A DNA stretch of 64,000 nucleotides, from assembly GCA_021613335.1 (NCBI GenBank), contig JAJTWR010000305.1, positions 43,501 through 107,500 of the forward strand, written 5' to 3'. The notes below the pieces were generated by a model that did not search any database, was not told where the DNA came from, and saw nothing but the letters and a program-made list of their open reading frames with translations. The DNA is from Whitmania pigra (taxonomy: Eukaryota > Annelida > Clitellata > Hirudinida > Haemopidae). The translations under genes and the position numbers were made by a program. Numbering within the stretch: position 1 is the first letter of the stretch; each line of letters begins with the position of its first letter. This document shows positions 13,863 through 60,016 of the stretch, piece by piece.

Positions 13863-15262
13863 TCACACTTCGACTAAGTCATGACCATGGGCAAAAACAT
13901 AATGAGTTGGATCAGTTGTCAAACAGGGACCTGCAGATCAACAATAAAAAAATGATTTCATTTTCAATTGCTTTTAATGATTTAAAAATTATAAGTAACT
14001 ATTTTTAATAAATAAATATTGTAGGTATAAGACATGCAGTTGTTATTAACTTCATTTAACATCAGTTGATATCAATGATGAACTTTTATTATCATCACAA
14101 AGGCTGAATTGCGAAACATAATAGCAAATGAGTGGTTATTACGCAGATCCAGGTCTTCGTAACCACTATAAAATTGTTATGTCATTTTATGTTAAATTGG
14201 CTTTAAAAGCCTATATGCATAAAATAACCGGACGCAACTTAAAAGTTACAAAATCAACAAAGTACAAAAATATCAATTAATAAGTTACCAAAACTCACGA
14301 TAGATTCTGGCTATAAGTGCTAGCCTTCCAGTATTAGAAGGCTTTATAACTAATATAGTCTTATTCGGATATCCTTTCTGCATCAAAAATGCGTAAGGTT
14401 GTCTGAATCTAATTGTAGACAAATCAAAACCATGAATCTTCATATAATTTTTATCCAAAGAACCGGTAGCGTCGTCACGGGTGGCGCCAAGAATAATTGT
14501 TCCCTTTACTACTCTCTGGCAATAAACATAATAATGAGGATTTTATTATTTTTTAATTATTCATCATGTTGACTCTTTAAATTAGCGTTGCATTCTCAAA
14601 TTTTATGATAGTATTTTCATCGCTATTGCATTCATTACTAAAATGACATCGACAGGAAAATCGAGTTAAAAGACACAGCTCCAAGGATAAAGTAGCAAAT
14701 AAATGAGTATTCAAACTACTGAATGTCGCAAGATTTAACAAAAATCATTAATTTTCTTACATTTAGATACTTTAAGAATTCAAATCCGGTAGCGTATACA
14801 TCATTACGTTTTTGGTTTTCTAATTTGTTCAACAACGGATTCAGCTCAACAGTATGAAGGCCCCTATTAACAAATGTTGCAGGCGTACCCTTTCCTACTA
14901 ATTCTATGGAAGCTGGATAGCTGGGTCCATAAGGAGATGAAGTTATGTTAATTGTGGCCGCTTGCATTTAACAAAGAAAAGAGTAAACATTATTGTTAAT
15001 TTAAATAACGCAGAGATGACTAAAAAATCCAACCTGGTTTTCTGGCGTATAAACGATATTCCACTTCACTATCGAATGTTTTGAAAGTTTGACATATACC
15101 GATTTCATCAATACCAAAGAAGAAGCAGTATTGATCGGTGGCGCAGATGGCCGCACACTTGGCAACGGTTTGGTCGGTTCCAATAACCTCATTCAGTGAG
15201 CTTAAATCTTCAAAGGTTATTGTCGCTCTAGCTATAAATATTAGTACATAAGTTAAGAACAT
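13863..15262 (-). CDS. Gene A: secreted PAN/apple + ILEI (FAM3-like) protein
   Basis: Four exons: 15262-15034, 14960-14761, 14515-14299, 13930-13863, intron phases 1, 0, 1, total 237 aa. Residues 1 to about 18 are a signal peptide (MFLTYVLIFIARATI). A short PAN/apple-like module follows with Cys36, Cys40, Cys46 and Cys57 (CxxxC...CFFFGIDEIGIC). Exons 2 and 3 form an ILEI domain, the FAM3 cytokine fold: VELNPLLNKLE, a FEFLKYLN helix, GTIILGATRDDATGSL, FDLSTIRFRQPYAFLMQKGY. Exon 4 is a short tail, PCLTTDPTHYVFAHGH. ILEI proteins are secreted cytokine-like factors and PAN modules bind protein or carbohydrate, so I infer an extracellular recognition or signalling role. The frame is intact, and it is very similar to B and C. 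Confidence 0.85.
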
Positions 15263-15289
15263 TCTAAACAGTTTTCAACAAACAACTGA

Positions 15290-15900
15290 GCAGTGACCAG
15301 CCAGTTAAATATTAGCACACCCAGGAATCGTTCGTTTGCATTAGGCCTAGACCTACTTACTCGTTGAGACGATAATGCTTATTTCTCAAATTAATAGTTT
15401 CCATTATTCTTAAAATCAGTGCCAATAATAAATAAGCATCGATTACGACGAGAAGATACGTGTTGAATTTCAGACGTTTAACATGCATACATAGCCGAAT
15501 AACTAATAGTCCTATTTTATCAATATGCCTGGAGATTTGTCGACGCAATATTTAACAATGATAATCTATTTCTTAGCTCAAATTAAACGTAGGCTTCGAT
15601 TATGACGAGAAGATACGTGTTGAATTTCAGACGTTTGACGTGTTTGCATAGTAGGATAATTAATAGACCCACTTTATCAATATGCCTAGAATATACTCGA
15701 TCGAAATATACATTTTAGAAACAATTATCCTTGTCTATTCGACCATTTGCCCAGTCGTTTGAATCTAAACTGCACGGTGCGATTACAAATACATTTCTAT
15801 CTCAGGACTAGGAGTGCCCTCCCAAGCAATGGCTTGGCCGAGATCAGCCAATTAATTAATAGCACATTCAAGAGTCGCTCAACATAAAGTTGTCTATGGG
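15290..15900. repeat. Block gamma: 5'-flank repeat upstream of gene A
   Basis: Near-identical to the flanks of genes B and C. It carries internal repetition: 'atgacgagaagatacgtgtt' occurs twice (about 15446 and 15602), each followed by a related 'gaatttcagacgtttaac/gac' segment. A short minus frame (15548-15357) is conserved in the copy at 38114-37923, but it is explained by recent duplication and shows no domain. Confidence 0.75.
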
Positions 15901-15994
15901 AAAAACATGGAGATCTCAAGTCCACTCCACATTATTTATTAGATTTCCCCTGCGACTTGTCTATAGTTATCGAGAATGCAAGTCTTACTGGATA

Positions 15995-57248: not shown

Positions 57249-57525
57249 ATGAACTGTGACATGTATCTAAAAGAGAAATTGCTCAAAATACTCCATGAAC
57301 AAAACAACTTTTCACAAGTAATGTCACTGATTGCAATATATTTTATTAAATTTAAAGATAATTATTTTTAAGATTTTAGAGATAAGATTAGAGGAATTGA
57401 ATCGAAATGTGGAAAATTTCATAAAAAAATCAGCTCTTCAATTATTTTTCTTCAGTCATGATTTACTGAATTTGTATGAATCAAAACCCGCTCCAGCCCA
57501 GGAGCCTGGAGAATTTGGAAGCTTA
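57249..57525 (+). CDS. Possible first exons of an unidentified gene
   Basis: 57249-57317 reads MNCDMYLKEKLLKILHEQNN and FSQ followed by a donor gtaatg. An acceptor at 57372 joins in phase 0 to a frame with EIRLEELNRNVENFIKKSAL, FFFSHDLLNLYES and PAPAQEPGEFG. The composition is helical and protein-like, not repeat-like. The second frame then runs straight into the ATT array, so either the exon ends before it at an unseen donor or the array has destroyed the gene. I do not recognise the protein. Confidence 0.35.
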
Positions 57526-58065
57526 TTATTATTATTAATTATTATTATTATTATTATTATTATTATTATATTATTATTATTATTATTATTATTATTATTA
57601 TTATTATTATTATTATTATTATTATTATTATTATTATTATTATTATTATTATTATTATTATTATTATTATTATTATTATTATTATTATTATTATTATTAT
57701 TATTATTATTATTATTATTATTATTATTATTATTATTATTATTATTATTATTATTATTATTATTATTATTATTATTATTATTATTATTATTATTATTATT
57801 ATTATTATTATTATTATTATTATTATTATTATTATTATTATTATTATATTATTATTATTATTATATTATATTATTATTATTATTATTATTATTATTATTA
57901 TTATTATTTATTATTATTATTATTATTATTATTATTATTATTATTATTATTATTATTATTATTATCTTATTATTATTATTATTATTCTTATTATTATTAT
58001 TATTATTATTATTATTATTATTAATTATTATTATTATTATTATTATTATTATTATTATTATTTTT
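57521..58065 (+). repeat. (ATT)n microsatellite, about 540 bp
   Basis: Almost pure ATT for more than 300 bp in the left part, with scattered single-base slips to the right. The long open frame through it (poly-Leu, Tyr, Ile depending on frame) is a by-product of the repeat lacking stops in these phases. Confidence 0.97.
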
Positions 58066-58294
58066 AAGATTAAAGTTGTTGTTATGAAAATAATATAACG
58101 AAAGTTTCACATCGTTAGTGACTTAAAATGTATTATTACATCCATTTATATAATAAATAGTATTAAACAAGCATTTAGTTAATATTTTTATTTGATTTAT
58201 TTACTCTCATGTAAAGTAAGTTTATCAGAGAAACTTGATCAATCACAGAGCCATCGATTGTCCAAATGTCGGAAACTGAAAGATTTCAGTCTGT

Positions 58295-60016
58295 TCAATA
58301 TTTCTTTGAATGTTTATTGTTAGCAATAAAAAAACGATAAAACTCAATCGGCGAATCGTGATATGGGCCTGAAAGTAATCAAAAATAAATAAATAAATGT
58401 AATTAAACACTACTTAATCTAATTTATTAACTATAAGTTATTAAAAATTATCTAGTTAATTAATTTCAAAACAAAATAAATTAAAACTCACGTATGATTA
58501 CGAATCTCACTACGAAAGTTTCTGAACGTTTTATCTTTTTCGACACATCAGTTACCAAAAGGGTTTTGTTTGGTTGTCCTTTTTGAAAGATGAAAGCCAT
58601 TCTACTCCTGTAATTGAGTTTGCCAAAATTCAGTCCTTCATCTTTAATGAAGGTACTGTCACTAAGATCTTTTCCAAACTCTGTTAAAATTTCACCCTTG
58701 TTACCACCAACTATCATTTCCCCATTCTTTAGTTTCTGAAATGTGTAAAGTTATAAAAGGTTTTATAATTTGATGCAAGTTATTATTATTTTTTTTTAAA
58801 ATTATTATTATACCGATAAATTTATTTCTAAAAAGAAATACTTCTATCTTCTCTCAACCTTGATGTAATTTTCAAACTTGTGGGCTCCGCTGGACCTATC
58901 AGTGTCAAACTTTACGAAATCCTTCAATCTGTTCAGATTTGGATCGAGTTTGCCAACAGTTATCCCATTAGCAGTCATTCGCCTCTCTCTACCTCCCACG
59001 AATATTATTTTCCCCATCTCTTCTTGTCCGATACGAGAGATTATATCAATAACTGAAAATGGAATCGAATCAAATACAAACGAACTTTCGTGTTTACGAA
59101 AGAACCAAATAATATTGTTGTAAACTTAGTTTTTGAAATTAATTAAGTTTATATTGCTAAAATAGTTAAATTTATATTTTATTATATTTGGTATATTTTT
59201 TGTGCGCGTGGTCTCGCTATTATTGCCGTAGAAAGCATTCTCGCTAATCACCTGACAATCAGCGAGAGTCCAGACAACTCAGAAGCCCAAATATCCATTT
59301 GCATCCTTAAGTACCTCAATTCCTTAAACACTTAACTTCTGTTATTCATTTCCGTTAACTGAATAGTTGCTCTAATAAACTTATTAGTTAACTTGCTTAT
59401 TTGCGGACTCCCGGATTATTTCAATATTATACCACATACAAATAATAATATACCACATACAAGTAATATTACACCATACACAAATATTAATAATCATATA
59501 CAAATACTAAAAATGTCAATAGTTGTGATTGGTTACTTTTACCCTTATTAGACTTTTTTGTTATATTCAAATTTTCACGTGTAATTTCATAATAAGTATA
59601 AGTTACTTAGCTTCTGCATGGATGGTCCAATTAGCGGGAACAGTATTCCATTTTTGGGCATCGTTGAGTGTAATCGAATAATTTTTAAATTTTGTATTTT
59701 GTATTTTGCTTATGTTTACATTCGCTTAAATAAGATAAACTCAAAAAAAAAAAATGAATAAACGAGAAAAGAATTATGAAATCGCTATAATATAATTTTA
59801 AATTATAAACATGGTATTCTGTGTTGTAGACCAGGCGTTGACTTTTGATTAGAAATAAAAATTGTAGAAAAAAAAGAAATTAGATAAATTGTTGAAAAAA
59901 AAACTAGACTCACGTGCAATGTGGCTCTTCGATTCACTTAAGTCAAATTGTACCACTTGCAGCTGAACTGAAAAGAACGCTAAAAATAACTTAATTGAAA
60001 TGTACAAAGACTCCAT
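58295..60016 (-). CDS. Gene G: secreted ILEI (FAM3-like) protein without PAN module
   Basis: Exons 60016-59914, 59052-58859, 58735-58492, 58368-58295, phases 1, 0, 1, 204 aa. Signal peptide MESLYISIKLFLAFFSVQLQ. ILEI part 1: GKIIFVGGRERRMTANGITV, GKLDPNLNRLKDFVKFDTD, FENYIK. Part 2: GEMIVGGNKGEILTEFGKDL, GLNFGKLNYRSRMAFIFQKG, QPNKTLLVTD. Tail RPYHDSPIEFYRFFIANNK, longer and more basic than in the others. The gene stands between oppositely oriented ATT and AAT arrays. It is the most divergent member together with D. Confidence 0.85.

What the first reader, a model, noticed from the sequence alone, without database searches (positions are those of the whole stretch)
13863..60016. Cluster of seven intact PAN/ILEI cytokine-like genes
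Seven four-exon genes (A, B, C, D, E with PAN + ILEI; F, G with ILEI only) all reconstruct to complete frames of 197-252 aa with signal peptides. FAM3/ILEI genes in well-known animals are few and dispersed, so a local array that fuses a PAN/apple-like cysteine module to an ILEI domain looks like a lineage-specific family of secreted recognition or signalling proteins. The ILEI call is from motif order (RGxxVxxLNP, FDT, FxxYI, GxIIxGxxDD, FRxxxAFxxQKG), not from a search.
Basis: partly seen in the sequence, partly recalled or inferred. Interest (0 to 1): 0.75.

Follow-up and report, generated by a model that had tools for sequence, protein, structure and literature searches.

The report
Tandem array of secreted lectin-like genes
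Seven neighbouring genes in an unnamed invertebrate animal encode small secreted-type proteins built on the sugar-binding fold of human FAM3 and POMGnT1, most of them with a short apple-like cap, and they look like a locally duplicated family of recognition proteins rather than cytokines.

Summary
Seven four-exon genes lie at exactly the stated coordinates. All have GT-AG introns in phases 1-0-1, open frames of 197-252 aa and hydrophobic N-termini. Pfam ILEI passes its cut-off in six of seven; C falls below it. The PAN part is weaker: D just misses the cut-off, A matches at E 0.24, and B, C and E do not register; all five share the four-cysteine apple core, and a model of D's exon 1 shows helix plus hairpin. 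Twelve further loci of this genome fit the same layout, eleven with an open cysteine-rich exon 1. So this is a genome-wide family, and the window array is one clade of it. F and G probably lost the PAN module.

"Cytokine-like" is misleading: ILEI is a bba fold, and in POMGnT1, FAM3A/C and a C. elegans domain it binds sugars (PMC9802357). The three sugar-contact residues are kept in A, B, D, E and F; G keeps one, C none. Exon 2 of A and E differs by 34 nonsynonymous and no synonymous changes (weaker by codon). Best reading: secreted glycan-binding recognition proteins. Expression and binding are untested.

The parts
13863..15262 (-). Gene A (237 aa, PAN-like + ILEI); exons 15034-15262, 14761-14960, 14299-14515, 13863-13930
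   Evidence: models; ILEI E 1.2e-7; PAN_3 E 0.24
20662..23898 (-). Gene B (237 aa, PAN-like + ILEI); exons 23670-23898, 23397-23596, 21142-21358, 20662-20729; intron 2 holds a Tc5/pogo-type transposon
   Evidence: (ILEI E 5.8e-9)
25648..27003 (+). Gene C (232 aa, PAN-like + divergent ILEI); exons 25648-25864, 26231-26430, 26584-26806, 26945-27003
   Evidence: ILEI E 0.0022, below cut-off
27773..28960 (-). Gene D (252 aa, PAN-like + ILEI); exons 28708-28960, 28340-28548, 27997-28219, 27773-27846
   Evidence: ILEI E 4.1e-10; PAN_1 E 3.3e-4, 20.9 of 21.4 bits
36592..37828 (-). Gene E (237 aa, PAN-like + ILEI); exons 37600-37828, 37334-37533, 36869-37085, 36592-36659
   Evidence: ILEI E 1.5e-7
55439..56776 (-). 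Gene F (197 aa, signal-like N-terminus + ILEI, no PAN); exons 56680-56776, 56035-56231, 55676-55925, 55439-55488
   Evidence: ILEI E 1.8e-8
58295..60016 (-). Gene G (204 aa, signal-like N-terminus + ILEI, no PAN); exons 59914-60016, 58859-59052, 58492-58735, 58295-58368
   Evidence: ILEI E 3e-8
12418..12558 (-). degraded D-like exon-2 fragment with a stop (gene relic)
   Evidence: tblastn E 2e-6; row at C293:55987-56058

Best explanation
The array is seven tandem copies of a secreted-type protein made of a signal-like N-terminus, a short four-cysteine apple (PAN) core encoded in exon 1, and a FAM3/POMGnT1-stem type ILEI domain encoded in exons 2-3 as a phase 1-1 cassette. F and G lack the PAN core, probably by loss. 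Shown: gene structure, ILEI membership, one clade in the window and the same layout elsewhere in the genome. Inferred: the proteins are secreted; the ILEI cleft, through the residues that correspond to R129, D179 and R207 of POMGnT1, binds a glycan; the PAN core adds a second contact or a dimer interface; tandem duplication and, for A/B/E, amino-acid diversification of exon 2 around the R129-equivalent spread the glycan specificity. The likeliest use is recognition of foreign or self glycans (an invertebrate lectin family), not cytokine signalling.
Against: No expression or binding data. C has none of the three residues and G only one; of the 7 outside paralogues tabulated, 2 have all three (L023, L029), L022 and L031 lack the first, and L024, L025 and L006 lack the second. 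FAM3C keeps the residues and is described as a signalling molecule, so they do not separate lectin from signal. The exon 2 signal weakens when counted by codon (A-E p 0.0018, single-hit codons only 0.037; A-B 0.041; B-E 0.22) and is absent in six C359/C354 copies. A-E intron 3 and 3' flank differ by 0.25-0.26, so the 4.8% reference holds only for the regions chosen. PAN is below the Pfam cut-off in A-E and does not register at E<=1 in six outside paralogues or in P0003. Fold hits of D's exon 1 are not significant: the three best Foldseek rows are unrelated proteins, the best apple row is fourth with E 3.2.
Confidence: 0.55

Rival explanations
1. FAM3-like secreted signals: the proteins act on host cells as hormone- or cytokine-like ligands, with sugar binding incidental or used to bind a glycosylated receptor.
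For: Closest solved structures by sequence are FAM3A and FAM3C, described as signalling molecules in PMC9802357; F and G have the bare signal + ILEI layout.
Against: Many local copies, some near-identical and fast-diverging, are unusual for hormones (inference); an added PAN-like module; no cysteines in the F and G proteins (letters), whereas FAM3 proteins carry disulfides (recalled).
Confidence: 0.25
2. Reproductive, mucus or matrix proteins (egg coat, sperm, slime) that evolve fast for reasons other than immunity.
For: Tandem duplication, exon 2 replacement excess in A/B/E; PAN exons are very numerous in this genome (110 matches at E<=1e-3, 150 of 470 candidates scored).
Against: No tissue data either way.
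Confidence: 0.14
3. Mostly non-functional duplicates whose open frames reflect youth, not use.
For: Transposon in intron 2 of B, a relic at 12.4-12.6 kb, one outside copy (L026) with stops in exon 1.
Against: D, F and G are old (dS about 2 to 3, dN/dS 0.20-0.26 for D-F, F-G and D-G; C-D not computable) and still open; 28 exons with intact splice sites and constant phases.
Confidence: 0.05

Closest known systems
FAM3 family (FAM3A-D; ILEI/PANDER), Pfam PF15711
   Same: Secreted-type N-terminus plus one ILEI domain (F, G); profile matches to FAM3A, B and C; same fold by a relative's model; R-D-R triad in five of seven
   Different: No cysteines in F/G; A-E carry an N-terminal PAN-like exon; tandem array with 1-0-1 introns; many copies
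POMGnT1 stem domain (carbohydrate-binding)
   Same: Aligned sugar-contact residues; fold; profile match 5ggj E 9.1e-5
   Different: Not attached to a glycosyltransferase; soluble, secreted-type
C. elegans FAMP-1 Fam3L1/Fam3L2
   Same: FAM3-like domains in an invertebrate; one binds sugars and one, lacking contact residues, does not (PMC9802357); compare D versus C here
   Different: [quoted passage not shown] PMC9802357 reports no isolated FAM3-like gene in nematodes
Apple/PAN lectins (Sarcocystis SML-2, Toxoplasma MIC4)
   Same: Helix over CxxxC plus a beta hairpin; weak fold and profile hits; MIC4 recognises galactose (abstract start of PMC6829480)
   Different: Short core only, not significant in sequence or fold search; apicomplexan proteins, no ILEI

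Membership tests
ILEI domain (Pfam PF15711) | score over the curated cut-off | tested here: met
   6 of 7 over 27 bits; C 18.9 bits does not pass
ILEI domain (Pfam PF15711) | FAM3/POMGnT1 bba fold | tested here: met
   [not shown]
POMGnT1-stem-like sugar-binding domains | residues equal to R129, D179, R207 | tested here: met
   A, B, D, E, F all three; G only R207; C none
POMGnT1-stem-like sugar-binding domains | binds GlcNAc or another sugar | not testable with these tools
   needs protein
FAM3 proper (orthology to FAM3A-D) | disulfide-forming cysteines of FAM3 (recalled) | tested here: not met
   F and G have no cysteine; exons 2-3 of A-E have none (letters)
FAM3 proper (orthology to FAM3A-D) | tree position with FAM3 rather than POMGnT1 stem | not tested
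   no FAM3 sequences were put in the tree
PAN/apple domain (PF00024, PF08277) | score over the curated cut-off | tested here: not met
   D 20.9 of 21.4 bits, A 11.7 of 21.1 (PAN_3), B, C, E not listed; none of six outside paralogues
PAN/apple domain (PF00024, PF08277) | CxxxC helix, then C...C hairpin core | tested here: met
   four cysteines invariant in A-E, P0002 and P0003; helix 15-27 and strands 33-36, 42-45 in the D exon 1 model, pLDDT 73
PAN/apple domain (PF00024, PF08277) | fold match to apple domains | tested here: inconclusive
   [not shown]
four-helix cytokine | helical bundle | tested here: not met
   ILEI profile and fold matches; FAM3 fold described as bba in PMC9802357

The most novel reading that the evidence does not exclude
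PAN-ILEI proteins are an unreported invertebrate lectin family of immune recognition: the sugar-contact half of the ILEI domain (exon 2) is driven apart by selection between tandem copies, and stand-alone secreted FAM3-like genes therefore exist outside chordates, against the view that they arose in early chordates.
Probability: 0.25. Interest if true: 0.7.

Novelty: new variant of a known kind. Interest (0 to 1): 0.5.

Why it matters
PMC9802357 says that the molecular mechanism of FAM3 members remains unclear. A family of natural variants on the same sugar-binding fold, with triad-bearing (A, B, D, E, F) and triad-less (C) members side by side, makes the question 'is glycan binding what the fold is for?' directly testable. 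It would also place secreted single-ILEI proteins in an animal with many innexin matches and no connexin match, i.e. very probably not a chordate (inference).

Tried and rejected
Four-helix cytokine: rejected (PMC9802357). F and G having a missed PAN exon: exon 1 goes straight from the hydrophobic start to the donor, and no PAN-like stretch was seen in the frame beyond it; a distant cryptic exon is not excluded.

Sponge host: considered first from genome size. Rejected because the genome has 152 Neur_chan_LBD matches (150 of 198 candidates scored) and 44 innexin matches, five of them over nearly the whole profile; that sponges lack both is recalled. Connexin gave 0 matches (10 candidates scored), but its control rang nowhere, so it is weak. 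A silicatein-type active site was looked for in 6 small stretches near 6 of 94 cathepsin-type matches; all six showed an ordinary CGSC active site. COX1 gave 4 matches; one (L061) is up to 80% identical to an alphaproteobacterial MAG, a second (L063) was only translated and two were not opened; this did not name the host.

L001 and L004 look like POMGnT1 genes by recall; Pfam found ILEI in three of five pieces (one under cut-off) and no glycosyltransferase domain in the two pieces tried for it, so this is open. PAN exon plus Fibrinogen_C at L068: the domains are there but no matching splice phases were found among the sites scanned, so no fusion is claimed. An IQ-TREE codon-model run printed likelihoods but no omega and was not used. 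The spread of the PAN-ILEI layout over animals was not surveyed: no annotated eukaryote collection was on hand. Papers: 'ILEI' + 'PAN domain' 0 papers, 'ILEI domain' 0, FAM3 + sponge 3 unrelated; listings gave nothing further used; one search gave the papers read in passages, one abstract start. 'Not in print' is not claimed beyond these searches.
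Full report
OBSERVATION. I rebuilt the seven genes from the DNA with explicit splice sites. All 28 exons fit: every intron is GT-AG, the phases are 1-0-1 in each gene, and the proteins are 237 (A), 237 (B), 232 (C), 252 (D), 237 (E), 197 (F) and 204 (G) residues without internal stops. The outer coordinates agree with the finding. The first 30 residues of all seven carry a stronger hydrophobic stretch than anything after residue 40; no signal-peptide predictor was available. A tblastn scan of the window with the seven proteins found one further convincing stretch, a D-like exon 2 relic with a stop at 12418-12558 (-), and one chance-level row (B, E 0.36).

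FAMILY IN THE GENOME. The genome held is 178 Mb in 381 contigs. Searches with ILEI and with D and E found 15 ILEI places outside the window, a lower bound. I modelled 12 of these. Of the other three, C359:196372 was not opened and two (C21, C337) appear to have another exon layout. All 12 models end exon 1 in phase 1 and end the ILEI cassette in phase 1. Eleven have the phase-0 intron between exons 2 and 3; L006 has lost it. An open cysteine-rich exon 1 is present in 11 of 12; L026 has stops there. L023 shows no start codon in exon 1. Exon 4 was not sought in these loci. Pfam on six of the 12 gives ILEI over cut-off in five (34.4-53.5 bits) and 26.3 of 27 bits in L006; none of the six registers PAN at E<=1. 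In a tree of 19 ILEI regions the seven window genes are one group (100/99), and C, D, F, G form a group (99/98). Because the outgroups have the cysteine exon, loss of PAN in F and G is the simpler reading; long branches (C, F, G, L006, L031) make the inner order unsure. Close relatives lie on unnamed public contigs of 779 kb, 104 kb, 1.375 Mb and 87 kb, and one (P0005) reads the same as L006 exon 1.

FOLD AND SUGAR SITE. A profile of 14 family members finds FAM3A (1.6e-8), FAM3C, the POMGnT1 stem (9.1e-5), FAM3B and cell surface hyaluronidase in the PDB. P0004, a relative with exons 2-3 in one frame, gives a low-confidence model (pLDDT 48; blocks over residues 41-130 at 51-79). Its first 21 Foldseek rows and first 12 VIA entries are all FAM3, POMGnT1 or TMEM2, with a clear drop after them. 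PMC9802357 (passages and Discussion section read) states that POMGnT1 R129, D179 and R207 contact GlcNAc, that FAM3A, FAM3C and C. elegans Fam3L2 bind sugars, and that Fam3L1, lacking two of the residues, does not. PMC9437275 (passages) reports the R129 and D179 pair also in a phage carbohydrate-binding module. In the printed alignment the residues 50 and 28 apart that fit this numbering line up with R, D, R of A, B, D, E and F. C reads M, K, N and G reads N, G, R. Outside the window L023 and L029 have all three; L022 and L031 lack the first; L024, L025 and L006 lack the second (which scored 14 rows; L020, L026, L027, L028 and L030 were only printed, not scored).

EVOLUTION. A, B and E are recent copies. 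In exon 2, A-E differ by 34 nonsynonymous and 0 synonymous changes (Fisher 3.4e-5), A-B by 33 and 2 (2.7e-3), B-E by 22 and 2 (0.037). Exons 1 and 3 show no excess in the three pairs. A-E 5' flank, intron 1 and intron 2 differ at 34 of 706 sites (4.8%); intron 3 and the 3' flank of A-E are much more different (0.25-0.26), so the copies are mosaics or the alignments there are poor. Counted by codon the excess is weaker: A-E 23 replaced and 0 silent codons, p 0.0018; only single-hit codons 0.037; A-B 0.041, B-E 0.22. Six C359/C354 copies show no excess (15 pairs). I take diversifying selection on exon 2 of A/B/E as suggestive. 29 of the 64 variable residues lie in exon 2, on both sides of the R129-equivalent at position 109. 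D-F, F-G and D-G have dN/dS 0.20-0.26 with dS about 2 to 3, i.e. constraint over long time (saturated, so rough); C-D could not be computed.

HOST. 44 innexin matches, five over nearly the whole profile, 152 Neur_chan_LBD matches and no connexin match (uncontrolled) fit an invertebrate eumetazoan, probably a protostome (inference). The assembly also holds COX1 matches on contigs that look bacterial; one of four was checked against named genomes.

MECHANISM AND JUDGEMENT. Shown: gene models, ILEI identity, family, residue conservation. Inferred: secretion, glycan binding through the conserved triad, PAN as second module, recognition of glycans as the role. The closest known things are FAM3, the POMGnT1 stem and FAMP-1; orthology to FAM3 is not claimed because F and G lack all cysteines and no tree with FAM3 was made. 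PMC9802357 proposes that FAM3 genes arose in early chordates and reports no isolated FAM3-like gene in nematodes; F and G are isolated ILEI genes in a very probably non-chordate animal, which qualifies that view if the models are transcribed. I rate it a new variant of a known kind.

Noticed in passing
G000, e.g. C7, C20, C43, C54, C58, C61, C5: PAN_1 is hugely expanded in clusters: 110 matches at E<=1e-3 with 150 of 470 candidates scored. Three sampled loci carry exons with PAN over its cut-off, with an EGF exon near L066's and a Fibrinogen_C exon near L068's; whether they are spliced together is not shown.
   Followed up: partly
window 22349-23079 (-): A Tc5/pogo-type transposase, spread over at least two overlapping frames, sits in intron 2 of gene B and makes that intron 2038 bases against 245-248 in A and E.
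   Followed up: no
window 31505-33703 (-): 732-aa open frame with DUF4371, of a kind seen in hAT-type transposons (the link to hAT is recalled).
   Followed up: no
window 45471-45677 (+): Protein kinase exon (Pkinase E 2e-6, 27.8 of 31.7 bits) that looks like TBK1/IKK-epsilon by recall, between genes E and F; nearby frames up to 47.6 kb may be further exons but the one tried gave no Pfam match.
   Followed up: no
window 16593-16901 (-): PIF1-like helicase fragment (E 1e-27), perhaps a Helitron remnant.
   Followed up: no
window 34824-36290 (+): Reverse-transcriptase pieces (RVT_1 E 4.5e-5, below cut-off, one piece scanned) just downstream of gene E: a LINE-like remnant.
   Followed up: no
G000:C310:512626 (L026): A near-identical copy of L024 has stops in exon 1: a recent broken paralogue or an assembly error.
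   Followed up: no
G000:C359:214099 (L006) and public contig of 1.375 Mb: A separate ILEI subfamily with exons 2 and 3 fused has at least four members on one public contig (P0004, P0007-P0009).
   Followed up: partly
G000:C89, C184, C177; C365, C349, C369: Clusters of Cys-loop receptor ligand-binding domains (152 matches) and of cathepsin-type peptidases (94 matches).
   Followed up: no
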